From positions 18,983,045 through 19,047,044 of the forward strand of contig NC_069127.1 of assembly GCF_026914265.1 (NCBI RefSeq): a DNA stretch of 64,000 nucleotides. The letters are read 5' to 3'. The position numbers and the translations under genes were made by a program. The DNA comes from Mya arenaria. Its lineage: Eukaryota; Mollusca; Bivalvia; Myida; Myidae. Positions 31,171 through 60,445 of the stretch are shown here, one piece after another; position 1 is the first letter of the stretch; every line of letters begins with the position of its first letter. The notes beneath the pieces were generated by a model. That model was not told the DNA's origin and did no database searches. It saw only the letters and a list, made by a program, of their open reading frames with translations.

Positions 31171-33560
31171 GATTAGACACGACTAAGAGTGCAGTTATAG
31201 CTCCATATGTATCCATTCATGTCTTAAGGTTTACTTCTCCCTCTAACTTTTCATTGGATAATCTGAAATACAAAAGCAACTTCGTTGGCAACTTGGCATA
31301 ATATATAATCCAGTGCAACTTATGCAGTGTTCAAAGTTCATGTCAGTCATGAATAGTAAACAAAATGTCAGTGTCTGAACTTTATCCACATCACACTTGC
31401 CGAACGATATATTTTAATGGTGAATTTATTTTTTAACAGTCGGCAAAGGTGTTGAATGGTGACCTTTGTGAATGAACGATGGATTGCTGCACATATTATC
31501 AGTTTCAACACTGATTTCAACGAGTCGATCTTCAAGGAGATTGAATTTTATTCCTTTAAAATTCATAATTTGCCTCAATTAAGCTTCCAGATTTCTTACA
31601 AGTCCGCTTATCCGTTAATCTGTTAATCCATTTATTCACTGTGAAGTATATTGTATATTTGGTATTGTATTAGTACGGCACTTCATTGGAAACAATAGCT
31701 AGATTAATCTCAATTAAATAACAGTGATTTAATCGAAGCATGGTTGAGGGACGGCATTGTTCGATCTTTGATTATATCCTATATTGATAAAGTAGTTAAC
31801 GTTAACACATATTCATTATGTTGTACATGTCAGATATAAAATGAAAATATTTAAAAACATTATGTGTGGGCATAAATACTGAGCTATATAACACTATTGA
31901 TATGTATTTCAATAAGAATATGTACAAGTGCGTAACATGGCTTAAACATAAGGCTAACAAAACTGATACATGTAACTGATGGCATGACTCAATATAATTT
32001 TTTCTCGGTCTTAAATGAAAAAGGTTTCTTGTATTGTCCCCAGAAACCATTATCATTAACAATTCTTAACAATTTAGTATATATAATTATAAACATATTA
32101 TAACTGATAAAAACATGTATTTACTTAAATAAATATCTTAGAAATCAATCGAAAGAAAATATACCTTCCAACTTTCTGTGTTCACCAGAGTAGTGTCTGT
32201 CAGTTTTAAAGTCCGGTATTTGAATGTTTAAATATTAAGTTTTAGAATCAGATGTACATTTCCAAACAAATGAATTATTTACTGGTTATCATTTAAATTC
32301 GAAAATAGGCTTTTTCTAGTTTATTTTCATTCAATTTTACTAATCTTTTATTCTCCATGTATCAGCGCTATGTATTGTCGTATAAAGCATGAGTTATTAA
32401 ATCATAAACCTAAAATAATAGCTTATTTAAGGCTGTTTGTCAAACGAAGCATATTTCATTGTATTGAGATTTGATTTACAATCGATTTATGTGGAATAGA
32501 CAATTACGACCATTAAAAGCAGTCGCCTCCGCTTGACTCACTAAAATGTTAAGGAATACGAACTAAGGTTTATACCAATACTAAGTCTGGTCGGAATTAA
32601 GCACGCAATTAATCGTGGTTGTGTTGCTTCCGTCCAGTAAGTACATTTAGGGTTTGCATGTTTGTGTTGGCCAGTGATAATCGAGGATTTTTTAATTTAT
32701 CTTTTTGGCCCCCTCTATTTTCTGTAGATGGCCAAAACTGAACTCAAAAAAAATATACTTTTACATTCATCTATTTAGGTCATTTGCTTTTCAACGTCTC
32801 AAAAGTTAGGCCAAACCGGTGTTTGCGGATAATGTTATCATATAGGGTATATTATACCTTCCGACAAGCGAGAGTTTGGCCCGCAGGAGTTTGCGGGAAG
32901 TGTTCGTGACCGCTACACGTAGATCGATATTTTTGAGGTACCGAAATTGCCTGAACCTCACCTCCTCCCGTAGGGTAGCGCTTATCTATGTTGAACATTA
33001 TTTAAAGACGTCAGCCTATCTCAACTTGCGTCGGCTGTTGGTTCATGAAATACCGACAACTGCCTTTAAAGTGCACGGCCAAATGCCATTCTGTAAGCTG
33101 TCATTGGTACACTGTACAGCAGATTAGCAGCCCATTGTAATCTGCTATTGTTTTATTTGAAACCGGCCTGTTCCCAATACAAGAAGTAACCTTGTAAAAC
33201 ACTGTCATCTTTAATCTCACAGAGGCGTCCTAGTTATCACAAGATATAAATAAAGTACACGGACTTAGCTTCCTACAAGTATACAATGTTGCTTATTTGT
33301 CCATGTATTTAATTGACTAGGGCTCGAACAAAGGGCCTCACTCATTGTTATTTTTCCCGAAAATACTGTTTATGAACGCATTACAAAATATGAGATAATT
33401 GAGTGATAATGCTCATATGGAACGATACGTGAATACCAGCGTGAATTTTCGAATTATATTGTTATTGATAATAAATATGTTAAAACATGATCAAAGTCAT
33501 TGTTCGTAATTACATCCACAATTTATTAATTAATTATTTAATTCAAAATTTTGTACCTAG
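31171..33560. other. Intergenic, no gene seen
   Basis: Mostly AT-rich. A more GC-rich patch at 32860-33130 opens an 83-codon plus-strand frame but has no recognisable family or exon borders. No repeat borders supported. Confidence 0.5.
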
Positions 33561-33564
33561 TATC

Positions 33565-36345
33565 AACATGCCGATAGATGTATAAGTATACTGTATCAAC
33601 CATTCTGATGGTTGTATAACTCCAGTGTATCAAGCACGCTTATAGTTGTATAACTGAAGTTTATCAAGCACGCTTATAGTTGTATAACTGAAGTGTATCA
33701 AGCACGCTGATAGTTGTATAACTGAAGTGTATCAAGCACGCTTCTGGTTGTATAACTGACGTGTATCAAGCACGCTGATAGTTGTATATCTGACGTGTAT
33801 CAAGCACGCTGAAAGTTGTATAACTGAAGTTTATCAAGCACGCTTATAGTTGTATAACTGAAGTGTATCAAGCACGCTGATAGTTGTATAACTGAAGTGT
33901 ATCAACTATAGTGTATCAACCATTCTGATGGTTGCATAACTCCAGTTTATCGAGCACGCTTATAGTTGTATAACTGAAGTGTATCAAGCACGCTGATAGT
34001 TGTATAACTGAAGTGTATCAAGCACGCTGATAGTTGTATAACTGAAGTGTATCAAGCACGCTGATAGTTGTATAACTGAAGTGTATCAAGCACGCTGATA
34101 GTTGTATAACTAAAATGTATCAAGCACGCTGATAGTTGTATAACTAAAATGTATCAAGCACGCTGATAATTGTATAACTACAGTGTATCAAGCACGTTTA
34201 TAGTTGTATAACTGCCGTGTATCAAGCACGCTGATAGTTGTTTAACTGACGTGTATCAAGCACGCTGATAGTTGTATAATTGACGTGTATCAAGCACGCT
34301 AATAGTTGTATAACTGAATTGTTTCAAGCACCGGATAGTCGTATAACTACAGTGTATCAAGCACTCTGATAATTGTATAACTACAATGTATCAAGCACGC
34401 TATGTCAAGCGCACTGATAGTTCTATAACTACAATGTATCAAGCACGCTGATAGTTGTATAACTACAGTTTATCAAGCATGCTATACCAAGCATTCTGAT
34501 AGTTGTATAACTACAATTTATCAAGCACGCTATATCAAGCACGCTGATAGTTGTATAACTACAATGTATCAAGCACGCTGATAGTTGTATAACTACAGTA
34601 TATCAAGCACGCTGATAGTTGTATAACTGAATTGTATCAAGCACCGGATAGTCGTATAACTACAGTGTATCAAGCACTCTGATAGTTGTATAACAACAAT
34701 GTATCAAGCACGCTATATCAAGCGCACTGATAGTTGTATTCCTACAATTATCAAGCACGCTGATAGTTATACAACTACAGTGTATCAAGCATACTGATAA
34801 TGCTGATAGTTGTATAACTACAGTATTTCAAGCACGTTGTTAGTTGTTTAACAATAGTGTATATAGCATGCTGATAATTGTATTACTATAGTGAATCAAG
34901 CATGCTGATAGTTGTATTACTATAGTGTATCAAGCATGCTGTTAGTTGTATAACTACAGTATTTCAAGCACGCTGTTAGTTGTTTAACAATAGTGTATAT
35001 AGCATGCTGATAATTGTATTACTATAGTGAATCAAGCATGCTGATAGTTGTATTACTATAGTGAACCAAGCATGCTGATAATTCGATTACTATAGTGTAT
35101 CTAGCATGCGGATAGTTGTTTTACTATAGTGTATCTAGCATGCGGATAATTATATAACTATAGTGTATCAGTCATGCGGATAGTTGTATTACTATAGTGT
35201 ATCTAGCATGCCGATAGTTTTATTACTATAGTGAACCAAGCATGCTGATAATTCTTTTACTATAGTGTATCAAGCATGCTGATAGTTGTATTACTATAGT
35301 GTATCAAGCACGCTGATAGTTGTATTACTATAGTGTACCAAGCACGCTGATAGTTGTATTACTATAGTGAACCAAGCATGCTGATAATTCTATTACTATA
35401 GTGTATCAATCATGCTGATAGTTGTATTACTATAGTGTATCTAGCATTCTGATAGTTGTATTACTATAGTGTATCTAGCATGCTGATAGTTGTATTACTA
35501 TAGTGTACCAAGCATGCTGATAGTTGTATTACTATAGTGTATCTAGCATGCTGATAGTTGTATTACTATAGTGTATCAAGCATGCTGATAGTTGTATTAC
35601 TATAGTGTACCAAGCATGCTGATAGTTGTATTACTATAGTGTATCTAGCATTCTGATAGTTGTATTACTATAGTGTATCTAGCATGCCGATGGTTGTATT
35701 ACAATAGTGAACCAAGCATGCTGATAATTCTATTACTATAGTGTATCAAGCATGCTGATAGTTGTATTACTATAGTGTATCAAGCATGCCGATAGTTGTA
35801 TAACTACAGTGTATCTAGCATGCTGATAGTTGTATTACTATAGTGTGCCAAGCATGCCGATAGTTGTATAACTAAAGTGTATCTAGCATGCGGATAGTTG
35901 TTTTACTATAGTGTACCAAGCATGCTGATAATTGTATTACTATAGTGAATCAAGCATGCTGATAATTGTATTACTATAGTGCATCAAGCATGCTGATAAT
36001 TGTATTACTATAGTGCATCAAGCATGCTGATAATTGTATTACTATAGTGCATCAAGCATGCTGATAATTGTATTACTATAGTGAATCAAGCATGCTGATA
36101 GTTGTATTACTATACTGAACCAAACATGCAGATAATTGTATAACTATAGTGTATCAGACAAGCTGATAATTGTGTTATTTTAGTGTATCAAGCATGCCGA
36201 AAGTTGCATTTCTATAGTTTCAAAAATGTAGATAGTTGTATTGCAATAGTGTATCAAGCATGCTGATAGTTGTATAACAAAAGTGTATCAAGCATGCTGA
36301 TAGTTGTATAACAAAAGTGTATCAAACACGCTGATACAAGATACA
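33565..36345. repeat. 34-bp minisatellite, main array (~80 units)
   Basis: Unit: ATCAAGCACGCTGATAGTTG followed by TATAACTGAAGTGT. About 2.8 kb of head-to-tail copies. Two variant blocks are visible: up to about 34.8 kb most units read AGCACGC..TATAACT(GA/AC)A; beyond that most read AGCATGC..TATTACTATAGTGT. A repeated super-block (TTTCAAGCACG.TGTTAGTTG TTTAACAATAGTGTATATAG) occurs at about 34824 and 34962. The array is cut on its right by a LINE and continues for 63 bp beyond it (38728-38790). Not a CRISPR array: no unique spacers. Confidence 0.95.
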
Positions 36346-38705
36346 CGATACAAGAATCTTTATTTAAAGTCGGGTATGTGTTAACAAGAAACACATTAGC
36401 TCAATTAGCTATTTTCCGACATGAATAACAAACATACATAACAAATCAAAACATAACAACAAATCAAAACATAACAATGAGGTTGTGACCTGGAACTAAA
36501 AGTATATATGTTAAAATGAACACATATTGGAGCATGCATACAAATAGGAAAATAGGATTAGAGCATCGTGAACAGTGATAACACCAACAAGTTTTCCCGG
36601 CTGTACGGCCAGTCCACACGTGCACGGTTCCACTAGTTGATATACCACTGTTAAATGGTTAGTTGTTTCAACAATATAACTTAAAGGGTAATCATATACA
36701 TTGAAGTAGCAAAATTGTAAGTAGCAAAATATACGAGGGAATAGCAGCTATGTACATCGATGTGTAGTTTGTAAAAAAAACAAAACAATCTTATAATTAA
36801 TCTAGCATGATAGGAAAAATACTTTGCAAGTATTGCTTAGAGGAAGTATGATATCTATCATGTTATTTTGATGTTACACCTATCACTGTAAAAGAATGTT
36901 AATTGGAAAAATTGAACAAGTAAAGTCGTAACACCTAAACAAAACACTTGCCGAAAGAAAAACACAAGTAGTTGTTTGTGTTCGACAGATGTTATATAAA
37001 TTTGAACAATCATAATTAGATGTTAGCCCATGTAGTTTAATTTAATAAGTTGTTATTTTAGTCAAAGAAGTCCGCTGATTTTTGTTTCTGGTATTTGAAT
37101 CCCATATCTTGTCCAGTGGGTGTAAGCCATCCCACTGAAAACAAAACTCATTTTCCGTTAGGACAAAGGATAAAAGATATTCAGTGCAACATCTTATAGT
37201 TCTCAATTTCTTCTATTTTTTAAAGCAAAAAGGTATTATTTACACATTGAACATTTACAAGAGGGACCTGTCCAGGTGCGGATCAGCCTTCTAAATTCCA
37301 GGTAGTTTCGGGAGACCCTTATTTCCTTTGGGAGGCTGTTCCAAACCTGACTGGCCTCAAAGCGGAAAGAGTTTTTTTCCATATTTAGTTGTTTTTACTG
37401 ATGGAACGTCTACACAGTCGTCTACACAGTTTTCGTATCTCAAATTAAAATGACATGTCGTAAAAGTTACAAGGTTTTTAACATATTCTGGTGAGATACC
37501 ATACAGACATTTGTAGGTTTCAATAGCAATGTATCTTACTCTACTTAAATGTAATGTTGGCAATTGAACTCTATGAAGTAGATTTTCGTAAATTGAGGTG
37601 TAATCATTAAAAACAATTTTTAAAGTTCTGTATTGAATATTTTCCAATTTTTCTGTGTTGGTCTTGCTAAAAAAATGCCAAACGACAGGACAGTAGTTGA
37701 AATTCGATCTGTTAAAAGATTTAAAGATGATAACCTTAGTATTGGTTGTCAAAAATTTGCTTAGTCTTTGAAGAATATTCAATTGCTTAGCAGCTTTTTT
37801 GCATATTTTAGAAATCTTGGCATCAAAATTTAATAAACTATCTACCTCAACTCCTAAAAGTTTCACTTTCTCTTCACAAACAATGGTGTGATTAAGTATA
37901 TTGAACTGTTTTATTACTTTAACAGACCTTGAGCCAACTGAACTTGCCTGAAATTTGTCAGAGTTAGCCTGCATTTGATTGGAAGTAAACCATATATCAA
38001 AATGTTACTTTCTTCTTCAAGAGTGGTCTTAACAACTTCAGGATTTTTATCACACACAGAAAAAGTATTGTCATTTGAATAATTATACAAATCTGCATTA
38101 TTGATAAAGTAGAAGATGTCATTTAGGAAGATGTTAAAAACTAAAGGCCCTAGTATTGATCCTTGTGATACACCTTTCAGGATGGAGTCCCACTCACTGG
38201 TAATTTGACCAAGTTTGACACGTTGCTTTCTGTTATTAAGATAGTTGTGCATAAGTTTACATGCTGGGGCTGAGAGACCGTATGCATTAAGCTTATCTAA
38301 GATTAGATAATGGGGCAGGCAGTCGAATGCTTTTGAGAGGTCCATTAGAACTGCGCCTACATATTTGTTCTCATCAAAGGCTTTTTTCAAGTCTTTCACC
38401 AGCCTTAACAGGGTAGTTTGACATCCAAACGTTGTTCTGAATGTTGCCAGGAAAGGATGAAAAATGTTCTCAAAATGACTAATCAGTTGCTCACTTATGA
38501 CCCGTTCATGTAATTTGGACATTGATGGTAAAATACTGACTGGTCTATAGTACTTTTCAATAAAGGGGACATCTTTCTTGAATATAGGGGTAACTTGTGC
38601 TAGCTTAAGACAATTTGGGAATGATCCTTGGTGAATTATTTCATTGGCCATGTTTCGGATGGGAACATGTAAAGTATCTTTCCAGCAATGATGATTTTGG
38701 GGGGA
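36346..38705 (-). mobile_element. 5'-truncated LINE inserted in the minisatellite
   Basis: A minus-strand reverse transcriptase: YYRPVSILPSMSKLHERVI, VLMDLSKAFDCLPH, GVSQGSILGPLVFNIFLNDI, then the catalytic box reads YNYSNDNT instead of the usual YADDT. This looks like the CR1/L2/Jockey group by text. A second frame (37357-37974) carries the thumb region (KVKLLGVEVDS, LNILQRLSKFL, SNFNYCPVVWHF). The two frames are joined by a frameshift near 37975, so the copy is dead. The endonuclease and ORF1 are absent. The 3' end, TTAAATAAAGATTCTTGTAT, matches the tail at 22412-22505. The minisatellite continues on both sides. Confidence 0.88.
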
Positions 38706-38727
38706 ATAATAGTTAGTTACTAACAAA

Positions 38728-38790
38728 TGCTAGTTGTATATCGATAGTGTATCAAGCATGCTGATAGTTGTATTACAATAGAAACTATTA
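38728..38790. repeat. 34-bp minisatellite remnant right of the LINE
   Basis: About two units (TATCAAGCATGCTGATAGTT, GTATTACAATAG) of the array at 33565, showing that the LINE landed inside the array. Confidence 0.85.
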
Positions 38791-39195: not shown

Positions 39196-40434
39196 TTAAC
39201 GCTCGTGTACGCGCATTTTGCACGTGGTGGGTCCATATACGAGTGAGGGCACCGGGCTCAAATCGACGTCACCTGGGTATGGTATGCTAAGCCTGTGCCT
39301 CTGCATTAGTGTCGCAAACAATAGGAAAATCTCCTGTCTCACCAGCGGCTCACCGATGCACCTGCGCCGTCCTAACCCAAACGATAAAACGTGCTGGCAT
39401 TTGGAGCTATCGAGGGTGTTCTGTTTAGTCAAAAATCGTTCAGGGCGAAATACGTCCGGGTCTCCCCAGAAGTCCTTTTCATAAGATACCGAATGTAAAT
39501 TTAAAAACACAACAGTGCCTTTATCAATGTCGAAACCGCACAGTTTTGTATCTGCAATAGTAAAATGAGGGAGCGCAAACGGAACTATAGAACTTTTTCT
39601 AAGAACTTCATGAATCGTGGCCTCTGTGTAGGGCAGGTATGCTCGGTCTTTCCGACAGCTTGGTCTATTTCGTCGTGTACTTTCCGCTGGACACCAGTAG
39701 CGCAGTTTTAGTTAACAACGTTAGAATTTTAACTTTTCTCTGGGAGGTTTTCGCCGTAAAATGCCAGCGCGCCTATTAGATCATTTACACTGTTTCCTTG
39801 AGCGTATTCCTGTACGTGCATTTTAATGTTTCTTTTGGTAATCCATTCCAACTCTAGCGCAAATTTTATAAATTGTTTTACTTTATTCGGAAGTATATAT
39901 CGCAGCCACAGTATTACATCGACCGGACTCCCTGCACCGACAAATGTGTTAAAATTGAAAGCCGAATCTATAATTTCATTCAATATTTTTTCTACCCCAT
40001 ATAACACCTGATACAGAATTCGAGCTATAGCTCTATACGCATAAAGCCCAATGTCGAGATCACAAAGTTTGCTGTCTTTCATTGAAAGCCTCACGCAGTG
40101 CCTTATTTGTGACAAAGTCAGGTTGGTCCAAAAACACATCCCCGGGCTTATCAGCTGCTTTCTTCACAGCTCTGTATCCGTTCACCACCACGGCCGGCCA
40201 GGCGCCCATCCAGATACGGAAAATGTCTCCGTATGAGTGTCTCCATTGCAGGAAGGTCTCCGTGGGGAGACGGCCAAACAGAGGCAGGTGACCAATGACT
40301 GGAAATCCCCATGGACCAGGAGGGTAGCGCTTTCGTGCTCCTAGAGAGATTCCTCCTAATAAATAGAGAATTAATCCACATAGAAATGCAGTGAAAATAA
40401 TCTGAAACATTTGTAATACAGGTTTCTTATTCAA
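39196..40434 (-). pseudogene. Cytochrome P450 pseudogene (copy A)
   Basis: Collinear with the open P450 at 52875-54365 but with four deletions: about 50 codons after AFN (intact residues ~111-160), six codons around SAEFEK (~192-197), roughly 29 codons covering the I-helix oxygen-binding region (~297-325), and seven codons near residue 340. Frames are no longer continuous. The N-terminal anchor with PPGPWGFPVIGHLP and the haem loop FGLGRRRCIGE survive. About 10 of the first 110 residues differ from the open copy. This is a host-gene duplicate that has lost function; the missing I-helix alone would prevent catalysis. Confidence 0.92.
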
Positions 40435-40567
40435 GAGATACCACCATATATATATCCCTCATGCCCATCTGTACACTACGTTTGTATAAAGGAGGTGTTT
40501 TACCATGACTGATTTAAAGCACACTCAAAATGCACATGGTAATACATTCTAAATCATACAGTGAACA

Positions 40568-43500
40568 TTGCCAACTTTGGAGAAATCCGCTGTAGAGAAA
40601 GTGCCCATAGAGTTATATAGGGAAAATATGGTTAAACAGTTCTCACGACTTAGTCTTTCAACAGATCAACTTACTTCCTACATATATGTTAGGATAATTC
40701 TTGCCCTTTAAGATGATGGTTTTATAATAATTGTATGATTTTTACATGTTGGTCCTTTTTAAGGGTTTTGTTGGTCATTAAAAGTTATATTGAAATAAGA
40801 AGGAGCTAAAATATGTTTTGCTATTTAAAGTTATTATAGACATCCGACCGCTTAGCTTCCAACGGATTACGATGCAGATTTTTTTCTCTTTCAAATGCAC
40901 TTTTCGAAATAATGGATTTTTAAATATCTTTTGGTCCTTTTTGAACATTTATGTAAAATTTGTAGAAAATCGATGCCCAAAAATTGTGTATTCAACTGTA
41001 CGGTAATGGTTTTATGGCCCACCCCGCGGCGTATTCACAGCAGGATAGAAATAATCCATCGACAAGGTTATGACACTGGGTATGACATGTGCAACGAAGT
41101 TTGTCATTTATAGCAATAAAATTATTCCCTAACTATTTCAAATTCTTTTATCATTATCATATTATTTAAATAATATATGATACTCGATTATTCATTTAAA
41201 TGTAGTTAAGAAATGTCATATTTTTGTGTAAAAAAAAGTAATATATTTAGCAAAAAATATTCCCATTTTTTAACCGCAGTCACTATTACAGACAGTCTAA
41301 ACGTAACTCTTTTCTTATAAAATATTAATGTTTCAAGTTTCATTGGCAATTTTGGAAATACATATGGGTCATGAAACATAATAAATAAGGGTATTCAAAG
41401 ATAATAATTTTTTTATATATATACATCGGGTCAACATGTTCGTTATAATTGCTTAAGTTCTAATTCTTAATGGTTAACATTTTGGTCTACCATTTTGCAC
41501 TCAACCAAACATGTTTATAAATTTAGGATAAATATAATTATTTTGATTAGGCCAAAAATGTGTAACATGGATTTTTGTCAGCATATTTTTAGTAACGAGT
41601 GCACTAGGTTTTCATAACGTGTCAAAATGCCATTAATTCAACATGTTGTTATGGAATAAAAGGGTATGACTGCCTTATTGTCAATACAACATTAATGACA
41701 TTTTAACTTGTATCGTTAAACAGAACAGAACAGAATGTTTATTTAACTTAAGCATATACAGCTCATCGTTATAAACACAGAATGCAAAAATGAAAAAAAC
41801 CATGCATGTGATAAATAAGTAATGAATGTAACAAATAAGTAATGCATATGGATATTTTGGTAACTTTACCAACAATACATATGATATACACAAAACTAAC
41901 ACATTTAACAGCAATATAATGTGAGAATGTCTTATAAAATATAATATATCATATATTTATGTCTCTTATCTTAAAAGCCTTAATACAGAAAATAGCTAAT
42001 TATATTAACAGAGTTTTTTATTAGAATTTAGTAAAGATATAAACTTAATCATACTGGGATTTCTAACATAGTATCTAGGAATATAAGTCTGTCGGATATT
42101 ACTATACATTGGGCAGACAAGAACAACATGAAACTCGTCTTCTATATCGTTTAAATGCCACAGTGTGCATTTTCGATATTGTCTAGGGATGTTGTTATGT
42201 CTACCTAGTTCAATATACAAATTATGCGAGGACAATATGAGTTTAGCTAAAACATTTCTATATCTTATATTATCCAGTAACACCATGTAGTTAGTCAATT
42301 GGAACGTATGTTTAACTTCCTTATATAAATACAATGATGAATGTGTCTCCATGGTAGCTCGCCCACTAGTTATGTATACATCTCTTAATCTATTTCTAAA
42401 CATGGGGACAAATGAATTTATATTAACCGACTCAGGGAATAACCACACATCCGCATAACCCGCTGACTGAAGTATACTTCTTACTTTAGAGACCCAGTTT
42501 ATAGTATGTGATTATCATCAAGATCCCTGTATTGATCCTTTAATATTGCCCTGAGGATACAATTATCTTTTTTCTCTTTGTATAATTTAAGGAAATACTT
42601 AATAACGCGAATATGTATCTCAATATATAGCGGAAATCTGCCTAGCTCTCCATAAAGTGACAATGAATTTGTGGAGCGCTTGACATTAAGTACCCACTTG
42701 CAAAATTTCCTATGTACTCTATCTATCACCTCTGGCTGAATATAGCCTCACACTTCTGAATTATAGTTAAGAATTGACAAAACAAATGCATCAAACAAGT
42801 TGAAAATTATACCAATAGGGACCTGGTTACGTTTGATTAAAGCCTTAAGCGACTTCATAGACCGTAATGCCTTGCCAGCCAGTGTATTAGCCGCCTGCAT
42901 GAAAGATCCACCATAGGAAAATACCACACCGAGATAGTTGAAGGAATTGACAGTTTCAACAGCTTGATCGTTGTACGTCCATATATCATTTCTAGCTAAC
43001 CGACCACCTTTTCTAAACACCACAATTTTAGTCTTTTCCACATTGTCCGTCAGATTCCATTTACAACAATAGGTACATAAAATATTCAATGATTCCTGCA
43101 GGCCTTCCTTAGTTTCCGACAAAATAGCTGCATCGTCTGTGAATAACAATAAATAAACCGAAATCTCATCAACTGTCAGACCTGCATTTAAGCCTTGTTG
43201 TAAATGTAGCTCAATATCATTGAGAAAGAGAGAAAAGTAAATCGGGGAGGTTATCTCCCCTTGAAACAAGCCAATATTACTGTCAAAGAAATCTGACAAA
43301 GAACCAAGATGTTTAATACACATTTTCACCTCACTATACATCGACCTAAGCAAAGACAAAAACTTTCCATCTATACCAAGTTTGATAAGTTTACACCAAA
43401 GGCGCCCTCTATCAATGCAGTCGTATGCCTTCCGGAAGTCCACGAAACAACTATACAATTTCTTCTTCTTACTTAATTGCCTTTGTATAAGAGAGTTAAG

Positions 43501-44336
43501 TAAAAACACCGGGTCAACTGTACTATAATTACTTTTAAAACCAAACTGAGCATCTGTCAAAATATCGTGCTCTTTTGCCCACTTTTTAAGCCGGTCATTT
43601 AATATAACTGTAAATAATTTAGCAAAACAGCTTATTAGTGTAATACCTCTATAGTTATTTGGGTCCGTTTGCTCTCTCCTTTTATATATATTGGAATTAT
43701 GGCTCCTTTAGCCCAACTACTGGGAAAAGATCGCATATCTACTATATGATTGAAGAATATCCCTAGGGGATTAATTATAACAGGTATACTTGACTTAAAA
43801 TACTCATACAGAATATTATCGAGACTGGTACTACATGATAGCAACTGCAGTTAAAATATCATTTTAGCTGTTCCTTTCCGATATTTCACTGCCAATTTTG
43901 TGTTACACTGTTAGAAAAATTACCAAACTGTTAAAATAAAGGTGTGGAAATGGCCCCAATTAAATGTCTTGATAAACGATCAATTACAGACTTCAACAAA
44001 AAGACACGGAATATAATATGTAAATGAAGTAAGTTTATCAGAGATGATTTGATATTTTAGTACTTTATCAACTAACGTTTCCCCTATATAGCAACTCCAC
44101 CTAATTATGGCTAAATATATAATCATCCAAAACTGAAATTTTCCATCGCAACTTATAATAAAAGGACGGGTCAACTTTACGACCCTCATAAATACTGTAT
44201 TTCTTATCTTCCTTAATCTTACACTGCGTCCAGTTGATAAATAAGTGCTAAACTAGCGTATCTTAACGCTACTATTGCACTGAGAGGAGAAATCGATAGA
44301 GACCGTCGTTACTCTGATAAGCTCCACAGTTGGCAA
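40568..44336. mobile_element. TIR-flanked insertion in copy A carrying a LINE
   Basis: Left end TTGCCAACTTTGGAG, right end in reverse TTGCCAACTGTGGAG. The paralogous site in copy B (54512-54533, CATACAGTCCATAGATTAAATG) is empty, which defines the insertion. Target duplications are not clear. Its own sequence flanks the LINE on both sides (40583-41720 and 43860-44320), AT-rich and without a transposase ORF. Confidence 0.6.
41722..43855 (-). mobile_element. LINE with C-terminal zinc-finger domain, decayed
   Basis: Minus-strand reverse transcriptase: FPSSWAKGAIIPIY (43635-43844 frame), then TDAQFGFKSNYSTVDPVFLL, CFVDFRKAYDCIDR, GLFQGEITSPIYFSLFLNDI and FTDDAAIL (catalytic F.DD present), SFNYLGVVFS. 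After 42748 come the thumb and a domain with EDEFHVVLVCPMY, part of a CCHC finger seen at the C-terminus of several LINE clades. Frames change at about 43600, 42740 and 42480, so it is inactive. The 3' end has AATAAACATTCTG and short GTTCT repeats (41722-41745 in reverse). The clade is not certain from text alone. Endonuclease missing: 5'-truncated. Confidence 0.85.
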
Positions 44337-49960: not shown

Positions 49961-50795
49961 ATGTTTCTTCAAATCTGAGATGATCACCTCATCAACCAAT
50001 GAAAGGAGAAATAATTATTATGGTTCAAGAATCAATGTTTAATGATCCCAAAACCAAGAACGCACAAACAGAAACACTACAACACCTATGCTAAAACTTA
50101 CAAACAGGACCAACACACAAAACGTTTTATAAACCAATCTCACAATATATCAGTGAAACCCGCAGTCCTAATTCTATAGCTTTTTCGGGGAATCAAACCA
50201 TTGACCCTGTTCCGTCTGTATCGCAATGATCCAGGCTTACTAAGAGGCCAAAAAGAAACCCCACGGATGTCCGAACCTGAAAACTAAAAGCTGTAGCGCA
50301 ATGCTTCACTTTAATTCTCCTAGCCTCCAATAGTTCAGAACCCGCCCTAAACAGTGCAAAAAAATACTTCAAAGCTTCCCTATATATTAACGTGATGTTC
50401 TCCCATCGGCGTCGAGACAAGAACTAACTATTGCTATGCCTTTCGCGTCTTATATACCCTAACATCACGTGACCAAAACGGAATGGTCCATTTTAACAAA
50501 CCGTATGGGTGAAACACTTATTTATAACTTACATTACAGAGCAGGGGTGTCAAGTTCATTAATCTTACGAAAAGAAGTAAACTATTAAGAATACAACCGC
50601 TTTTGTATTTATTTGTGATTTACTAGCTAAGTTTAGACATTTAGAACTTAAACCATAACAAAAGTATTAAATACACGAAATCATCATAAAGTAAAAGAAG
50701 CGATAAAATGAAAATCAAATACTCTATAAATTTACTAAAACAGAAATGTTTATTTTCCGGGCTCCGGACTACATGATTCCATGAACATTACATAA
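49961..50795. other. Possible tail of the Ty3-type fossil or spacer
   Basis: Follows the hAT-like element. The left edge must belong to the interrupted retroelement because of the target duplication, but I could not recognise retroelement proteins or an LTR here. It ends where the 34-bp minisatellite resumes. No host gene seen. Confidence 0.4.
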
Positions 50796-50799
50796 CTAT

Positions 50800-51400
50800 A
50801 GAGTATCTAGCATGCTGATCAATGTATAACTATAGTGTATCAATCATGGCGATAGTTTTATAACAATAGTGTATCTACAAATCGATAGTTGTATAACTAC
50901 AGTGTATCTAGCATGCCGATAGTTGTTTAACTACAGTGTATCTAGCATGCCGACAGTTGTATAACTACAGTGTATCTAGCATGCCGATAGTTGTATAACT
51001 ACAGTGTATCTAGCATGCCGATAGTTGTATTACTTTAGTGTATCAAGCATGCCGATAGTTGTATTACTTTAGTGTATCTAGCATGCCGATAGTTGTATTG
51101 CTATATAGTGAATCAAGCATAACGATAGTCGTATGACAATGGTGTTTCTAGCATGCTAATAGTCGAATGCCAATGGTGTTTCTAGCATGCTGATAGTCGT
51201 ATGACAATGGTGTATCTAGTTGTATCACTATAGCGTATCAAGCATGTCGACTGATGTTTTACTATCGTGAATCGAGCATGCCGATAGTTGTATAACTTGA
51301 GTGTATCAGGCATGCCGATAGATGTATTATTATCGTGTATCGAGCATGTTGATATTTGTATAACTATAGTTATCAAGCATAACGATAGTTGTAAAACAAT
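50800..51400. repeat. 34-bp minisatellite, second array
   Basis: About 17 units of the same repeat as 33565-36345, in the variants TCTAGCATGCCGATAGTTG and GTATAACTACAGTG. The first ~100 bases (ATGGCGATAG..AACAATAGTG TATCTACAAATCGATAG) match 58861-58965 almost base for base. Confidence 0.92.
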
Positions 51401-52874: not shown

Positions 52875-54365
52875 TTAACGCTCGAGTACGCGCATTTTGC
52901 ACGTGGTAGGTCCATATACGAGTGAGGGGACCGAGCTCAAATCGACGTCACCTGGATCAGTAACGCTAAGCCTGCACCTCTGCATTAGTGTCGCAAACAC
53001 TAGGAAAATCTCCTGTCTCACCAGCGATTCACCGATGCACCTGCGCCGTCCTGACCCGAACGATAAAACGTGATGGCATTTGGAGCTATCGAGGGTGTTC
53101 TGTTTAGTCAGAAATCGCTCAGGGCGAAATACGTCCGGGTCTCCCCAGAAGTCCTTTTCAAAAGATACCGAATGTAAATTTAAAAACACAACAGTGCCTT
53201 TATCAATGTCGAAACCGCACAGTTTTGTATCTGCAATAGTAAAATGAGGGAGCGCAAACGGAACTATAGAATTTTTTCTAAGAACTTCATGAATCGTGGC
53301 CTCTGTGTAGGGCAGGTATGCTCGGTCTTTCAGCGAAACACGACGACCGCTTCCGACAACTTGGTCTATTTCGTCCTGTACTTTCCGCTGGACATTAGGA
53401 AATGCTACCATGTAAATCATGAGCCACTGAACAGTCTTAGCCGTCGTGTCCAACCCCGCACCTTGGAGGTTAAACAAGGTATCCAGTAGCGCAGTCTTAG
53501 TTAACAACGTAGAATTTTCACTTTTCTCTGGGAGGTTTTCGCCGTAAAATACCAGCGCGTCTGTTAGATCATTTACACTGTTTCTTTGAGCGTATTCCTG
53601 AACGTGCATTTTAATGTTTCTCTTTGTAATCCATTTCAACTCTAGCGCAACGTTCATAAATTCTTTTACTTTATATGGAAGTATATATCGCAGCCACGGT
53701 ATTACATCGACCGGATTCCCTGCACCGACAAATTTGTTGAAATTCAATGTAGACTCTACAATTTCATTCAATATTTTTTCAAACTCAGCACTTTTTTCTA
53801 CCCCATATAACACCTGATACAGAACTCGAGCTATAGCTCTGTACGCATAAAGCCCGATGTCGAGCTCACAAAGTTTGCTGTCTTTGACCAATATCCTCAC
53901 AAATCTGTCAGACTCCTCAATAAAAAGGCTTTCGAAATCACATCTCTTCATGTACATAGCAAGAGCAGCTACGGTAAATTTTCGGTGTTGAAGATACCTC
54001 GGAGAAAAGTTCGCAAATGCTAAAGGATCGTCTCCATTGAATGCCTCACGCAGTGCCTTATTTGTGACAAAGTCAGGTCGGCCCGAAAACACATCCCCGG
54101 GCTTATCAGCTGCGTCCTTCACAGCGCTGTATCCGTTCACCACCACGGCCGGCCAGGCGCCCATCCGGATACGGAAAATGTCTCCATATGAGTGTCTCCA
54201 TTGCAGAAAGGTCTCTGTGGGGAGACGGCCAAACAGAGGCAGGTGACCAATGACTGGAAATCCCCATGGACCAGGAGGGTAGCGCTTCCGTGCTGCTAGA
54301 GAGATTCCTCTTAATAAATAGAGAGTTAATCCACATAGAAATGCAGTGAAAATAATCTCAAACAT
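52875..54365 (-). CDS. Cytochrome P450, clan 2 (CYP1/CYP2-like), intronless
   Basis: A membrane-bound haem monooxygenase of the microsomal type, 496 residues (normal length). An N-terminal hydrophobic anchor (residues 1-20) is followed by basic residues and the proline hinge PPGPWGFPVIGHLP (30-43). The I-helix oxygen-binding motif is AGLDTT (303-308), the K-helix ExxR is EVLR (360-363), PERF is at 415-418, and the haem loop FGSGRRRCIGE has its Cys at 443. NSIVPFALPH and WGDPDVFRPERF resemble clan-2 enzymes such as CYP1 and CYP17. The substrate cannot be told. The start is the first Met of the anchor; the decayed copy has an in-frame extension of eight residues that is not kept here. A single exon is unusual for this clan and may mean a retrocopied ancestor. 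Upstream text (54366-54530) is conserved with copy A. The only related gene in the window is the pseudogene 13 kb away. Confidence 0.94.
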   Translation of the reverse strand: MFEIIFTAFLCGLTLYLLRGISLAARKRYPPGPWGFPVIGHLPLFGRLPTETFLQWRHSYGDIFRIRMGAWPAVVVNGYSAVKDAADKPGDVFSGRPDFVTNKALREAFNGDDPLAFANFSPRYLQHRKFTVAALAMYMKRCDFESLFIEESDRFVRILVKDSKLCELDIGLYAYRAIARVLYQVLYGVEKSAEFEKILNEIVESTLNFNKFVGAGNPVDVIPWLRYILPYKVKEFMNVALELKWITKRNIKMHVQEYAQRNSVNDLTDALVFYGENLPEKSENSTLLTKTALLDTLFNLQGAGLDTTAKTVQWLMIYMVAFPNVQRKVQDEIDQVVGSGRRVSLKDRAYLPYTEATIHEVLRKNSIVPFALPHFTIADTKLCGFDIDKGTVVFLNLHSVSFEKDFWGDPDVFRPERFLTKQNTLDSSKCHHVLSFGSGRRRCIGESLVRQEIFLVFATLMQRCRLSVTDPGDVDLSSVPSLVYGPTTCKMRVLER

Positions 54366-54761
54366 TTTATACAGGTTTCTTATTCAAGAGATACCAGCAT
54401 ATATATATCCCTCCTGCCCGTCTTTAAACTACGTTTGTATATAACAGGTATTTTAACATAACTGATTTAAAGCACACGCAAAATCACATGGTAATTTAAT
54501 ACATTTTACATCATACAGTCCATAGATTAAATGTAAACATTAAATTATGTAATAGATACGGTACGAGTTTTTCTAAAAAGTGTTTTACGTTTGTAATTGA
54601 GAACACTTTTGAAAGCGAGTTACATTGTCTGACTTATACGAGGATAAGTGTATTGTATTGCAGATATAAATGAGCAAATAAATGCATTTATAAATAAATG
54701 CATGCATAAATGCATAAATAAATGTATAAATGCATAAATAAATGCCTAAATGCATTTATGC

Positions 54762-55030: not shown

Positions 55031-55602
55031 TAGTCTAAATCATATTATTTATCATACAATTTCTCAGAAGAAATACTTGGTATATATTTGTACCTTTATT
55101 TCTTGTTATGACGACGAACTGCGTTTTCATTAGTTCAATTAATTTGTACATTCTTGTGATTCTAATATAAAATGGTTTGATCAACTACTTTCTGATAAAG
55201 AGATGAAAAGTTGTTTTTTTCTTATTATAAAAAAACGTAGAAAATAACAATGGTAACATTGAAAACTATTTAGATAACTCGGTGAAATTTGCAAATCATG
55301 TGGCCCAGTAAAGTGCATTACATATCTGCATTGTTGCGTGTTAACCTCTTCATTTTTTTCAATAATTATCTCGCAATTTAGTTAATAATTCTAGCTGTAA
55401 ATTGTAATTGAGGTTGCTTACGTTAAAAGTAAAACTGAAAGTTAAACAAATGATGTGATTACAATAGTCTTGTTTTGGAGGTTTACACTTTTCTATATGT
55501 GGACAATTCTAAAACCTTAACATTAAAACCTGGTTACATAGCATTTCGGCGTTTCTATGTTCTACATCTGTATTCATGTCTTTTCATCAACAGTTATATA
55601 TA
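55031..55602. other. Spacer containing a segment duplicated at 61315-61445
   Basis: No gene. The part 55464-55602 (CTTGTTTTGGAGG, GTGGACAATTCTAAAA, CATTAAAACCTGGTT, GCATTTCGGCGTTTCTATGT) recurs at 61315-61445. Confidence 0.7.
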
Positions 55603-55771
55603 AATGTGGTGTTTGTGTATAGCCTTTGACCTCAGGGTTAACATAAATGTGGAGTTTGTGTATAGCCTCTGACCTCAAGGTAGATATAAATGTGGTGTTT
55701 GTGTATAGCCTCTGACCTCAGGGTAATTCAAATTTGGTGTTTGTGTCTTGCCTCTGACATCAGGGTTAATT
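55603..55771. repeat. 43-bp minisatellite, left part
   Basis: Four diverged units of ATAAATGTGGAGTTTGTGTA plus TAGCCTCTGACCTCAGGGTTAAT. The array is interrupted by the insertions at 55772-57954 and resumes at 57955. Confidence 0.9.
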
Positions 55772-56515
55772 TAAGGAATGAATTGCGGGGTTGATGTCAT
55801 TATCGGGGTATGAACGCAATTGGGTTGGTCAATGTGTGTGGAGTCCGAATGCTTGGTCAAAACGCTATGAAATGGAATGAAAAAACAACAACAAAAATCT
55901 ACTTGCTTAATGAAAAATTTACCTTAAACTGATATAAAACAGATAAATGTCACTGAAGATGTTAAACAGCTGTTAAATGACCTAGATTAAAACGAAACTG
56001 AAAGTAGTTGACAAAAATATAGCAAAAATTACCCAAAATGAAACAAATATTGTAGTACTTACGTGGTTCACTCCAAAAATCCAATATTTATTTAAATTAC
56101 TTGTAAATAAAAATTAACACAGAAAAATACACTTAATTATTAACACTAATCCATCCGCGGAGTGCCGCGCGGCGTTGGACGACGTCTGGCTGCTCTTCTG
56201 GCGGACAGAGCCTTACAACTTTCCCACTTCACCGCTCTTGGATTAGCGACAGTCTGGACCACTGGTTTCCTCGTCGGGGAGCCAATTTGTAGACGTGGGG
56301 ATACAGTACTTCGACCCAACACTTCTCAGGATTCGATATATTTATTTCTCAATGGTCGTATAGAAATAAATATATCGAATCCTGAGAAGTGCTGGGTCGA
56401 AGTACTGTATCCCCACGTCTACTGTGTGGAGTCCGAAGGACTCCACGCGTACTTTGACCAATCCAATTGCGTTCATATCCCCGATAATGACATCAACCCA
56501 GCAATTCATTCCTTA
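55772..56515. mobile_element. Foldback DNA element with double inverted repeats
   Basis: Outer inverted ends of about 60 bp: TAAGGAATGAATTGCGGGGT..GTCATTATCGGGGTATGAACG on the left, mirrored at 56450-56515. Inside it, 56289-56349 and 56362-56422 form a second, 61-bp stem with one mismatch and a 12-nt loop. GGAGTCC motifs link both halves. No transposase. The target duplication is not clear. It lies within the 43-bp minisatellite. Confidence 0.75.
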
Positions 56516-56579
56516 TATTTACACCAATAGTTCATTATTTCATTTAAGAATTGTTAAAAACTACTTCAATTCATTTAAG

Positions 56580-57924
56580 AAAACCTTTTAGTAATCCGTT
56601 CTTACCCATTCTGTAAAAAGAACGACCCGACTATAACCGGAAACATTTTTTTTCAAATGACGTCACAATAACGCGGGAAAAGATCAACCACTTGAAATCA
56701 CTTTAAAACGTAAAAATTGAAACACTTCTGGCACCAATATATTTAAAATATAATAAACTAACACTTTCTAAAATGTTGATCTATATTTTACGGGACCTGC
56801 TGACACAATACAACCAATAACAAGATCAATAGCTTTCATGTATATTGTTGTGCAATGAATTACGATCCGAACATATCCGAAGATGTTGCGTTCATCGATT
56901 GATGAAAGCAGTTGTCGCAAGGCAGTTCAGAAAGTGTTATAGAGAAATTGCACATTCCAAAGCTGTGTCAGGTGAACAAGCCTACAATATTGGATACAGA
57001 GAGGCACACAGACAAGTTCGTTATAGTTGATGGAAGAACAGCACCATCAGATTTCCAAGACAGCAGAGAAATTAAAAAGGAAATAATAAAACACAAAAAG
57101 GTGAAAGCAAAATATGCTTATCCCTTATCAAGAGGTGGAATTGGAGTTCACACAGAGAACCAAGCTGACGAGGAAAAACTGCTTCAAAGGTGGCCAGAGG
57201 GCTCATTCAAAACAAATACAGATACATTGAATGTTCATGAAAACACACCTAAACCATTGTGTGTCTTTAAAAATGTTCCAACAAACATACAAGTAGACTC
57301 AGTTGGTGAAGAGGTTAAAACACAAACAGGTGTAGCAGCAAACTTGAGGCGCCTGAGATACAGAGATACACATAAACCCTTGCCAGTTGTAATTGTAGAG
57401 TGTGAGTCTTTTCAAGACCAACAAAAACTTTTTCAAAGTAATTTCACAGTCGGAAAGAAGACAATTTTGGTACAGGCATACAGAAGCAAGAGGAATATTC
57501 CTACAAGGTGTTTCCATTGCCAAGGATTTGGACACATAGCTGCAATCTGTAAAAAAGTCAACTTCTGTGAAAACTGTGCAGAATCCCATGTAGGGAAATG
57601 CAAAAACAAACAAAAGTGTAAAAACTGTTCTGGGGGTCACAAATCTAGCTATAGTCAGTGCCCAGCATTTTTGAACCTGCTTGAAAGATTAAAAAGAAGA
57701 GATTAGAAATAATAAATACTGTAACAAATAAATTATAACGTATTATGTAAACATCAGCGATCCGTTTAAGTGCCTGTCATTAAATTAGCAAGTAGCAAGT
57801 GTATAAGTACATAGAGAATTAGTACCATGCGATGACAACGGTGAATTAATTCATCAAAAGTACAAGGAGACCATAGGCGACAACCAAGCCATTCGGCATA
57901 GCCGAAAAACTAGACGAACAACAA
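56580..57924 (+). mobile_element. ORF1-only non-LTR retroelement with 13-bp target duplication
   Basis: The 1345-bp insert is flanked by the perfect direct repeat CAATTCATTTAAG (56567-56579 and 57925-57937) and ends in ACGAACAACAA, a short A-rich 3' tail. This layout is that of target-primed reverse transcription. It carries a LINE-type ORF1 but no reverse transcriptase, so it must have been moved by another element's enzyme, comparable with half-LINE elements of mammals. Confidence 0.75.
56912..57706 (+). CDS. LINE ORF1 (gag-like, three CCHC knuckles)
   Basis: An open frame of 264 codons. Residues about 112-190 (CVFKNVPTNI, LRRLRYRDTHKPLPVVIVEC, ILVQAYRSKRN) look like the RRM-type nucleic-acid-binding fold of LINE ORF1 proteins of the Jockey/I group. 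Then come three zinc knuckles: C200-x2-C203-x4-H208-x4-C213, C219-x2-C222-x3-H226-x3-C230 and C236-x2-C239-x3-H243-x6-C250. It ends with a basic KRRD tail. The first ~11 residues may be extra; other starts exist. The frame is fully open, implying a recent insertion or selection. It is expected to bind RNA in a retrotransposition particle. Confidence 0.85.
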   Translation: MSQGSSESVIEKLHIPKLCQVNKPTILDTERHTDKFVIVDGRTAPSDFQDSREIKKEIIKHKKVKAKYAYPLSRGGIGVHTENQADEEKLLQRWPEGSFKTNTDTLNVHENTPKPLCVFKNVPTNIQVDSVGEEVKTQTGVAANLRRLRYRDTHKPLPVVIVECESFQDQQKLFQSNFTVGKKTILVQAYRSKRNIPTRCFHCQGFGHIAAICKKVNFCENCAESHVGKCKNKQKCKNCSGGHKSSYSQCPAFLNLLERLKRRD

Positions 57925-57954
57925 CAATTCATTTAAGGAATGGAAGTTGAGGTG

Positions 57955-58808
57955 TAAATATATAAATGTGGGGTTTGTGTAATATATAAATATGGAGTTT
58001 GTGTATAACCTCTAACGTCAGGGTTAATATAAATGTGGAGATGGCGTAAAGCCTCTGTCCTCAGGGTTAATATAAATGTGGAGTTTGTGTATAGCTTCTG
58101 ACCTCAGGGTTAATATAAATGTGGAGTTTGTGTATATCCTCTGACCTAAGGGTTAATATAAATGTGGAAATGGCGTAAAGCCTCTGTCCTCATGGTTAAT
58201 ATAAATGTGGAGTTTGTGTATATCCTCTGACCTCAGGGTTAATATAAATGTGGAGTTTGTGTATAGCTTCTGACCTAAGGGTTAATATAAATGTGGAGAT
58301 GGCGTAAAGCCTCTGTCCTCATGGTTAATATAAATGTGGAGATGGCGTATATCCTCTGACCTCAGGGTTAACATAAATGTGGAGTTTGTGTATATCCTCT
58401 GACCTCAGGGTTAATATAAATGTGGAGATGGCGTAAAGCCTCTGTCCTCAGGGTTAATATAAATGTGGAGTTTGTGTATATCCTCTGACCTCAGGGTTAA
58501 TATAAATGTGGAGATGGCGTAAAGCCTCTGACCTCAGGGTTAACATAAATGTGGAGTTTGTGTATATCCTCTGACCTCAGGGTTAATATAAATGTGGAGT
58601 TTGTGTATATCCTCTGACCTCAGGGTTAATATAAATGTGGAGTTTGTGTATACCCTCTGACCTCAGGGTTAATATAAATGTGGAGTTTGTGTATAGCCTC
58701 TGACCTCAGGGTTAATATAAATGTGGAGTTTGTGTATAGCCTCTGACCTCAGGGTTAATATAAATGTGGAGTTTGTGTATAGCCTCTGACCTCAGGGTTA
58801 ATATCAAT
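57955..58808. repeat. 43-bp minisatellite, right part (~20 units)
   Basis: Units of 43 bp in two types: GGAGTTTGTGTATAGCCTCT GACCTC and GGAGATGGCGTAAAGCCTCT GTCCTC. In the left half the two alternate in a mixed pattern; the last five units are all of the first type. Each first-type unit contains TGACCT, the nuclear-receptor half-site in reverse, which may be chance. Confidence 0.93.
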
Positions 58809-58809
58809 G

Positions 58810-58848
58810 TGCGTGCGTGCGTGCGTGCGTGCGTGCGTGTGTGTGTCC
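58810..58848. repeat. (GCGT)n microsatellite
   Basis: Eight GCGT units passing into GT dinucleotides. Confidence 0.92.
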
Positions 58849-58860
58849 ACTAACGTTGTA

Positions 58861-58965
58861 AAACAATAGTGTATTAAGCATGCTGATAAATGTATTACTA
58901 TAGTGTATCAAGCATGGCGAAAGTTATATAACAATAGTGTATCTACAAATCGATAGTTGTACACT
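58861..58965. repeat. 34-bp minisatellite, short third array
   Basis: Three units matching the start of the 50800 array including its rare variants (CATGGCGA, CTACAAATCGATAG). It is therefore a copied segment, not an independent expansion. Confidence 0.88.
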
Positions 58966-59802: not shown

Positions 59803-60445
59803 GGCATGATACACTAAAGTAATAAAACTATAGACATGCTAGATACACTGTAGTAATACAACTATCGGCATGCTAGATACACTGTAGTTATACAACTATC
59901 GGCATGCTAGATACACTAAAGTTATACAACTATCGGCATTCTAGATACACTGTAGTTATACAACTATCGGCATGCTAGATACACTGTAGTTATACAACTA
60001 TCGGCATGCTAGATACACTAAAGTAATACAACTATCGGCATGCTAGATACACTGTAGTTATACAACTATCGGCATGCTAGATACACTAAATTAATACAAC
60101 TATCGGCATGCTAGATACACTAAAGTAATACAACTATCGGCATGCTAGATACACTGTAGTTATACAACTATCGGCATGCTAGATACACTGTAGTTATACA
60201 ACTATCGGCATGCTAGATACACTAAAGTTATACAACTATCGGCATTCTAGATACACTGTAGTTATACAACTATCGGCATGCTAGATACACTGTAGTTATA
60301 CAACTATCGGCATGCTAGATACACTAAAGTAATAAAACTATCGGCATGCTAGATACACTGTAGCTATACAACTATCGGCATGCTAGATACACTAAATTAA
60401 TACAACTATCGGCATGCTAGATACACTGTAGTTATACAACTATCG
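59803..60445. repeat. 34-bp minisatellite, inverted array with 306-bp higher-order repeat
   Basis: About 19 units, reverse complement to the other arrays (GATACACTGTAGTTATACAA CTATCGGCATGCTA). The rare variant GGCATTCTAG occurs at 59937 and again 306 bp (9 units) later with the same order of CTGTAG/CTAAAG units around it, a two-copy higher-order repeat. Confidence 0.93.

What the first reader, a model, noticed from the sequence alone, without database searches (positions are those of the whole stretch)
56567..57937. Half-LINE: a mobile unit with only ORF1
An open 264-codon zinc-knuckle ORF1 is enclosed by a perfect 13-bp target duplication and a short A-rich tail, with no reverse transcriptase. 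Because both borders are defined, this is not a random fragment. Mammalian HAL1 elements have this design; I do not know of one described in molluscs. The open frame suggests recent activity.
Basis: partly seen in the sequence, partly recalled or inferred. Interest (0 to 1): 0.7.

Follow-up and report, generated by a model that had tools for sequence, protein, structure and literature searches.

The report
Truncated copy of an ORF1-only LINE
The stretch holds a shortened copy of a small jumping element that carries only the RNA-binding half of a LINE and no copying enzyme; the borders first proposed were wrong, but such a family does exist in this animal's genome.

Summary
The reported unit (56567-57937) is not one mobile element. 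Its first ~360 bp and last bases belong to an interspersed repeat, X; 12 of 12 fetched X loci are uninterrupted where the window carries the ORF. The 13-bp "target duplication" is an X-internal repeat plus tail bases; the 13-mer is absent from all 12 X loci. The real insertion is 56930-57927, flanked by TTCA. It is 5'-truncated: L003 carries 350 bp of 5'UTR and a 413-codon ORF1 with a PHD-like N-terminus.

The half-LINE idea survives. 18 of 18 rows spanning the end of ORF1 (12 independent insertions) run into one 3'UTR with no reverse transcriptase between. Sixteen such rows split from the other ORF1 rows with support 98. Relatives with ORF2 (endonuclease-RT-RNase H) share the 5' end and, at 75-80%, the 3'UTR. 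The nearest of these are broken; a more distant one has intact copies. Best reading: an ORF2-deleted, HAL1-like family, probably moved in trans. Selection on its ORF1 is not shown.

The parts
56930..57927 (+). the actual insertion: 5'-truncated copy of the ORF1-only element
   Evidence: empty site GGCAGTTCATTTAAGG in X copies; homology with L002/L003 from 56928 to 57927
56930..57706 (+). ORF1 remainder (codons 156-413 and stop, numbered as in L003), open, three CCHC knuckles
57707..57916 (+). 3' untranslated region, alignable with the 3'UTR of ORF2-bearing relatives
57917..57927 (+). 3' tail AACAACAACAA, (CAA)n
56926..56929 (+). left TTCA, short target duplication (CA is also shared with the element, so 2-4 bp)
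57928..57931 (+). right TTCA, short target duplication
55765..55849 (+). repeat X, left piece
56423..56929 (+). repeat X, middle piece (left flank of the insertion; contains the left 13-mer)
57928..57961 (+). repeat X, right end (right flank of the insertion; contains most of the right 13-mer)

Best explanation
Window 56930-57927 is a 5'-truncated copy of a small non-autonomous LINE family that kept the 5'UTR, ORF1 and 3'UTR of its parent and lost ORF2. Shown here: many insertions with common 5' and 3' ends, one ORF1-3'UTR junction, one cluster in the ORF1 tree, no RT, and insertion of the window copy into an X element. Inferred: the family arose once, by a deletion from the end of ORF1 to the end of ORF2 in a LINE with APE endonuclease, RT and RNase H; its RNA, ending in a 3'UTR and (CAA)n tail like those of ORF2-bearing LINEs of the genome, is copied by target-primed reverse transcription with the RT of such a LINE; the 5' truncation and short duplication in the window are the usual outcome of that process.
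For: No ORF at this site in 12 of 12 X loci (11 independent). Complete relatives L002 and L003; in L003 1803 bp with 350 bp 5'UTR, 1242 bp ORF1 with stop, 211 bp 3'UTR with tail. Same 5' start GTGACGTCAC in ORF1-only copies (L003, L012) and in ORF2-bearing ones (L035, L045). Same junction in 18 of 18 spanning rows, 12 independent insertions. 16 ORF1-only rows against 12 other ORF1 rows: the branch between them has support 98. ORF2-bearing relatives: 10 loci with ORF2 after ORF1; L059 ORF2 1284 aa with Exo_endo_phos_2, RVT_1 and RNase_H; two places with complete open ORF2 and a third open from residue 16 on. 3'UTRs alignable at 75-80%. 17 independent insertions with varied 5' truncation, 15 of them with a (CAA)n-type tail.
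Against: No direct evidence of movement in trans. The closest ORF2-bearing lineage found is only 72-76% identical in ORF1, so the deletion event is not seen. Two of the 17 insertions (L008/9, L014/15) lack the tail. Target duplications are short in the window and not recognisable in several copies. Singletons in ORF1 look neutral (59 synonymous of 208). One row counted as ORF1-only in the tree, L047, breaks off before the junction and cannot be scored. Twelve further places with this 5'UTR at 86% or more exist; only two were fetched, and both are joined to another LINE, so the state of ten is unknown. Genome counts are lower bounds: only part of the first-look candidates were scored.
Confidence: 0.82

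Rival explanations
1. One-off internal deletion: the window copy alone lost ORF2 from a full LINE.
For: ORF2-bearing relatives exist.
Against: The same ORF1-3'UTR junction is in 18 of 18 spanning rows at 12 independent insertions.
Confidence: 0.03
2. The unit bordered by the 13-bp repeat at 56567 and 57925 is the element.
For: The repeat is exact, and only 24 of 54,439 13-mers outside tandem arrays have an exact copy 0.5-2 kb upstream.
Against: Both stretches are in X loci that lack the ORF; the first 363 bp of the unit occur without it in 23 other places.
Confidence: 0.01
3. The copies are retrocopies of the transcript of one ORF1-only locus, or of a domesticated ORF1 gene, and not of a family with several source copies.
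For: Low copy number; among the copies fetched only L003 is open for all 413 codons; singletons look neutral.
Against: 18 fixed differences separate two groups of copies that I defined from the tree, so there were at least two sources over time.
Confidence: 0.15
4. Copies spread by segmental duplication rather than retrotransposition.
For: Five pairs of rows on one chromosome share flanks (L004/5, L006/7, L008/9, L010/11, L014/15), and L062 shares flanks with L006/7 at about 82%.
Against: After merging those, 17 insertions show no shared flanks, have varied 5' truncation, and 15 have the tail.
Confidence: 0.03

Closest known systems
HAL1 (half-L1) of mammals
   Same: Non-autonomous LINE derivative that encodes only ORF1p (PMC5753468, passages seen); here too ORF1 is kept, ORF2 is lost, and the ends are like those of ORF2-bearing LINEs.
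   Different: HAL1 derives from L1. Here the ORF2-bearing relatives have RNase H, and ORF1 has CCHC knuckles and a PHD-like N-terminus.
HeT-A of Drosophila telomeres
   Same: Has a Gag but no RT, and is thought to use the RT of TART or TAHRE in head-to-tail arrays (PMC5537684, abstract and passages seen); here 5 of 17 insertions abut ORF2-bearing-family DNA head to tail, against 0 of 24 flanks of 12 X loci.
   Different: Copies here lie at least 1.5 Mb from contig ends; no sign of a telomere role.
Type IC ORF1 (PHD, RRM, three CCHC) of L2- and CR1-lineage LINEs (PMC4120745, passages seen)
   Same: PHD-like N-terminus (weak PDB profile hits, most of the 18 listed are PHD fingers, best E=0.03) and three CCHC knuckles.
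   Different: RRM not shown; ORF2-bearing relatives carry RNase H, which points to the I superfamily (recalled), not tested with an RT tree.

Membership tests
ORF1-only (half-LINE) non-autonomous element | ORF1 followed by 3'UTR, no RT between, in many insertions | tested here: met
   18 of 18 spanning rows, 12 independent insertions; L063 spans by only 12 bases of ORF1
ORF1-only (half-LINE) non-autonomous element | defined 5' and 3' ends common to copies | tested here: met
   5' end in L002, L003, L012; (CAA)n-type tail in 15 of 17 insertions
ORF1-only (half-LINE) non-autonomous element | ends shared with an autonomous LINE | tested here: met
   5' start with L035 and L045; 3'UTR 75-80% with L059, L061 and the piece in L035
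ORF1-only (half-LINE) non-autonomous element | ORF1 under purifying selection as a working gene | tested here: inconclusive
   fixed differences 9 S / 9 N of 18 (p=0.07 against 0.30; p=0.06 against singletons); singletons 59 S of 208
ORF1-only (half-LINE) non-autonomous element | mobilised in trans | not testable with these tools
   needs a retrotransposition assay
HAL1 | derived from L1 | tested here: not met
   relatives' ORF2 has RNase H and ORF1 has CCHC knuckles; that this is not L1-like is recalled knowledge
HeT-A | telomeric location | tested here: not met
   nearest copy (L015) about 1.5 Mb from a contig end
I superfamily LINE (ORF2-bearing relative) | APE endonuclease, RT and RNase H in one ORF2 | tested here: met
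   Pfam hits on L059 ORF2
I superfamily LINE (ORF2-bearing relative) | RT phylogeny | not tested
   no reference RTs at hand
Type IC ORF1 | PHD, RRM and three CCHC | tested here: inconclusive

The most novel reading that the evidence does not exclude
An ORF1-only LINE lineage in a bivalve that has outlived its own ORF2-bearing parent lineage and now spreads through the RT of a more distant, still intact LINE, each landing in or beside the other's (CAA)n tail, so that mixed head-to-tail arrays of an ORF1-only and an RT-bearing element arise away from telomeres: a HeT-A/TART-like division of labour without a telomere role.
Probability: 0.3. Interest if true: 0.65.

Novelty: new member of a known kind. 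Interest (0 to 1): 0.48.

Why it matters
The ORF1-only LINEs known to me are the L1-derived HAL1 of mammals and the telomeric HeT-A of flies. An independent case from an RNase H-bearing LINE in (by inference) a bivalve, with a PHD-like plus zinc-knuckle ORF1, would say that keeping ORF1 while losing RT is a repeatable route for LINE parasites, and would give a natural test of whether ORF1p helps an RNA compete for another element's RT. In eight literature searches I saw no molluscan half-LINE among the listed titles and abstract starts; each listed 15 or 20 of the papers found, and only open-licence papers are held.

Tried and rejected
The 13-bp repeat as target duplication: rejected by X loci. 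An early idea that two compensating frameshifts broke the start of ORF1 inside the unit: dropped, because that stretch is X, not ORF1. RT frames elsewhere in the window (37914-38729, 42748-43707) as partners: the element has no other copy in the window beyond 14-17-base matches, and these RTs gave only distant hits in the loci then held. Pfam named no domain in ORF1 but weak zinc knuckles. The key HAL1 paper is not held; HAL1 is cited through passages of PMC5753468. A target duplication for every copy: several copies show none that I trust.

Rows dropped before counts: eighteen loci left out (L029-L032, L036-L038, L040, L042, L044, L046, L048, L049, L052, L055-L058), all repeats of places already held; in the tree, rows with under 300 aligned ORF1 bases; in the tree, L034 and L059 are the same place counted twice, and L053, placed on the ORF2 side, shows no ORF2 in its flank; in the singleton count one row per insertion, 11 rows, with L016, L062 and L063 left out. 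Not fetched: places C2:27921379 and C9:23428374 and the weaker places of the 3'UTR search; 10 of the 12 other 5'UTR places at 86% or more. In one search the ORF1 matches near these unfetched places end by codon 77, as in the two fetched chimeras.

Full report
What was checked. The window lies at G000:C6:18983045-19047044 of a 1.216 Gb assembly in 18 contigs. [quoted passage not shown] PMC10663159, passages seen); this naming is inference.

Anatomy. The ORF (56906-57706), the tail and the exact 13-bp repeat are there. But the reported unit is composite. A genome search with 56567-57937 gave 41 matches: the window itself, 23 places that match only within bases 1-363 of the query, and 17 that match within bases 362-1361 (40 of 2001 candidates were scored, so counts are lower bounds). 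The first set is a repeat, X. In L017-L028 (12 of 12 loci; L024 and L027 share flanks and are one insertion) X runs from window 56929 straight into 57928-57961, reading GGCAGTTCATTTAAGG in 10 and one base different in 2 (L024, L027), with no ORF. L019 and L026 each hold a second X copy; that of L019 is uninterrupted too, and in L026 the right end of the second copy is not matched. So the ORF-bearing DNA is an insertion into X at 56929/56930 that ends with AACAACAACAA at 57927, with TTCA on both sides. Two bases (CA) are also in the element, so the duplication is 2-4 bp.

The 13-bp repeat. Its right copy is CAA of the tail plus TTCATTTAAG of X. Its left copy is X DNA that in the 12 other loci reads CATTTCATTTAAG, AATTTCATTTAAG or near forms; the exact 13-mer is in 0 of the 12 loci. 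It is a coincidence of an X-internal repeat, the tail and about one substitution.

The family. L002 and L003 match the window copy at 97% and continue upstream: a 413-codon open ORF1 in L003, and in L002 a 418-codon frame, stop to stop, with a shifted end. Taking L003 688-2490 as the element gives 1803 bp: 350 bp 5'UTR, 1242 bp ORF1 with stop, 211 bp 3'UTR with tail. The 5' start GTGACGTCAC is shared by L003, L012, L047, L035 and L045; L002 and L003 share a few more bases before it. All 18 rows that span the end of ORF1 (L001-L016, L062, L063; L063 by 12 bases only) run into the same 3'UTR. By flanks, L004/5, L006/7 (with L062 at about 82%), L008/9, L010/11 and L014/15 are one insertion each. 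That leaves 12 independent insertions with the junction, and 17 with 3'UTR of the family (L064-L068 hold 3'UTR only). 15 of the 17 have a (CAA)n-type tail; L008/9 and L014/15 do not. Nearest divergences of the window copy are 0.017 (L003) and 0.020 (L002) (K2P).

The ORF2-bearing relatives. A protein search with L003 ORF1 gave 102 matches (101 of 149 candidates scored). Ten fetched loci have ORF2 after ORF1: L033, L034/L059, L035/L061, L039, L041, L043, L045, L050, L051, L054. L059 has both frames open: ORF1 410 codons, ORF2 1284 codons with endonuclease, RT and RNase H domains. L033/L060 is 99.6-99.8% identical to it in protein. A genome search with that ORF2 gave 45 matches; two are complete and open (C2, C9), a third is open from residue 16 (C8), the others are partial or broken (36 of 9455 candidates scored). 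The ORF2-bearing lineage nearest to the ORF1-only cluster (L035, L045, L050, L051, L054; 72-76% identity in ORF1) carries stops in every one of these five (1, 8, 1, 1 and 2 in the ORF1 matches that brought in these loci). That this parent lineage is dead, and that a more distant LINE now supplies RT, is inference.

Tree and selection. In a maximum-likelihood tree of 28 ORF1 rows the branch between the 16 ORF1-only rows and the 12 others has support 98; monophyly rests on rooting with the L059 group. L047 was labelled ORF1-only although its junction cannot be seen. Between L003 and L035, changes fall mostly at third positions (65/61/156 for positions 1/2/3), as in a coding gene. Within the cluster, singletons are 71/55/82 by position, 59 synonymous of 208 (28%; 20-33% expected under no selection), and 18 fixed differences between two groups are 9 S / 9 N (p=0.07 against 0.30; p=0.06 against singletons). 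In the frame of L003, 5 of the 11 copies used have no in-frame stop in what they cover (window, L002, L003, L004, L010), the other 6 have 1 to 4; L002 and L004 are frameshifted all the same. So selection on ORF1 after the loss of ORF2 is not shown.

Origin of the junction. The end of the ORF1-only ORF1 (AAAAAGAAGAGATTAGAAATAATAAATA) resembles both the ORF1 end of L035 and the ORF2 end of a related element (AAAACGAAGAGGATGTAATGATAAAATAAATA). A deletion between these two like ends would give the observed unit. This is inference from a short, imperfect match.

Mixed arrays. 5 of 17 insertions abut DNA of the ORF2-bearing family in the same orientation: L004/5, L006, L012 and L066 downstream within about 45 bp, L014/15 upstream within 2 bp. 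Weaker or more distant matches in the flanks of L008/9, L012 and L013 were not counted. As a control, 0 of 24 flanks of the 12 X loci match the same references. L007, the duplicate of L006, lacks the downstream piece and so serves as its empty site: a short 3' end of the ORF2-bearing LINE landed just behind the (CAA)n tail. L059 itself is preceded by several truncated copies in line.

The observation of an ORF1-only unit without RT is right in kind; borders, duplication and completeness are wrong. The family is HAL1-like in design, not a HAL1 by descent.

Noticed in passing
L069 (C8:36998600-37000100), L070 (C3:1143000-1144500): Chimeric LINE: the 5'UTR and the PHD-like start of this ORF1 (to about codon 70) are joined to a different LINE, CR1-like by recall, with an endonuclease region; the two copies are 94.7% alike, and ten further 5'UTR places at 86% or more were not read.
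   Followed up: partly
55765-55849, 56423-56929, 57928-57961: Repeat X, at least 23 other places at 96-97%, with an inverted arm pair; in the window it sits between two stretches of one 43-bp minisatellite (55593-55774 and 57984-58811).
   Followed up: partly
55850-56422: 573 bp inside X that find no match in the 12 fetched X loci, with a 61-nt inverted repeat of 98% (56289-56349 / 56362-56422).
   Followed up: no
L059 (C2:68476500-68486000): Head-to-tail array of truncated copies ahead of a LINE with open ORF1 and ORF2; pieces start right behind CAA-rich tails.
   Followed up: partly
L004/L005, L006/L007, L008/L009, L010/L011, L014/L015: Pairs of the same insertion on one chromosome 1.4-2.9 Mb apart with 5' flanks 93-100% alike (the 3' flanks of L008/L009 mostly differ): segmental duplication or leftover haplotype in the assembly.
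   Followed up: no
33560-36336, 50792-51397, 58855-58943, 59808-60445: A similar 34-bp tandem repeat in several arrays and in both orientations.
   Followed up: no
39196-40458 and 52875-54383, minus strand: Two similar P450-like genes (motif named from recall), one in three broken frames, one open for 502 codons.
   Followed up: no
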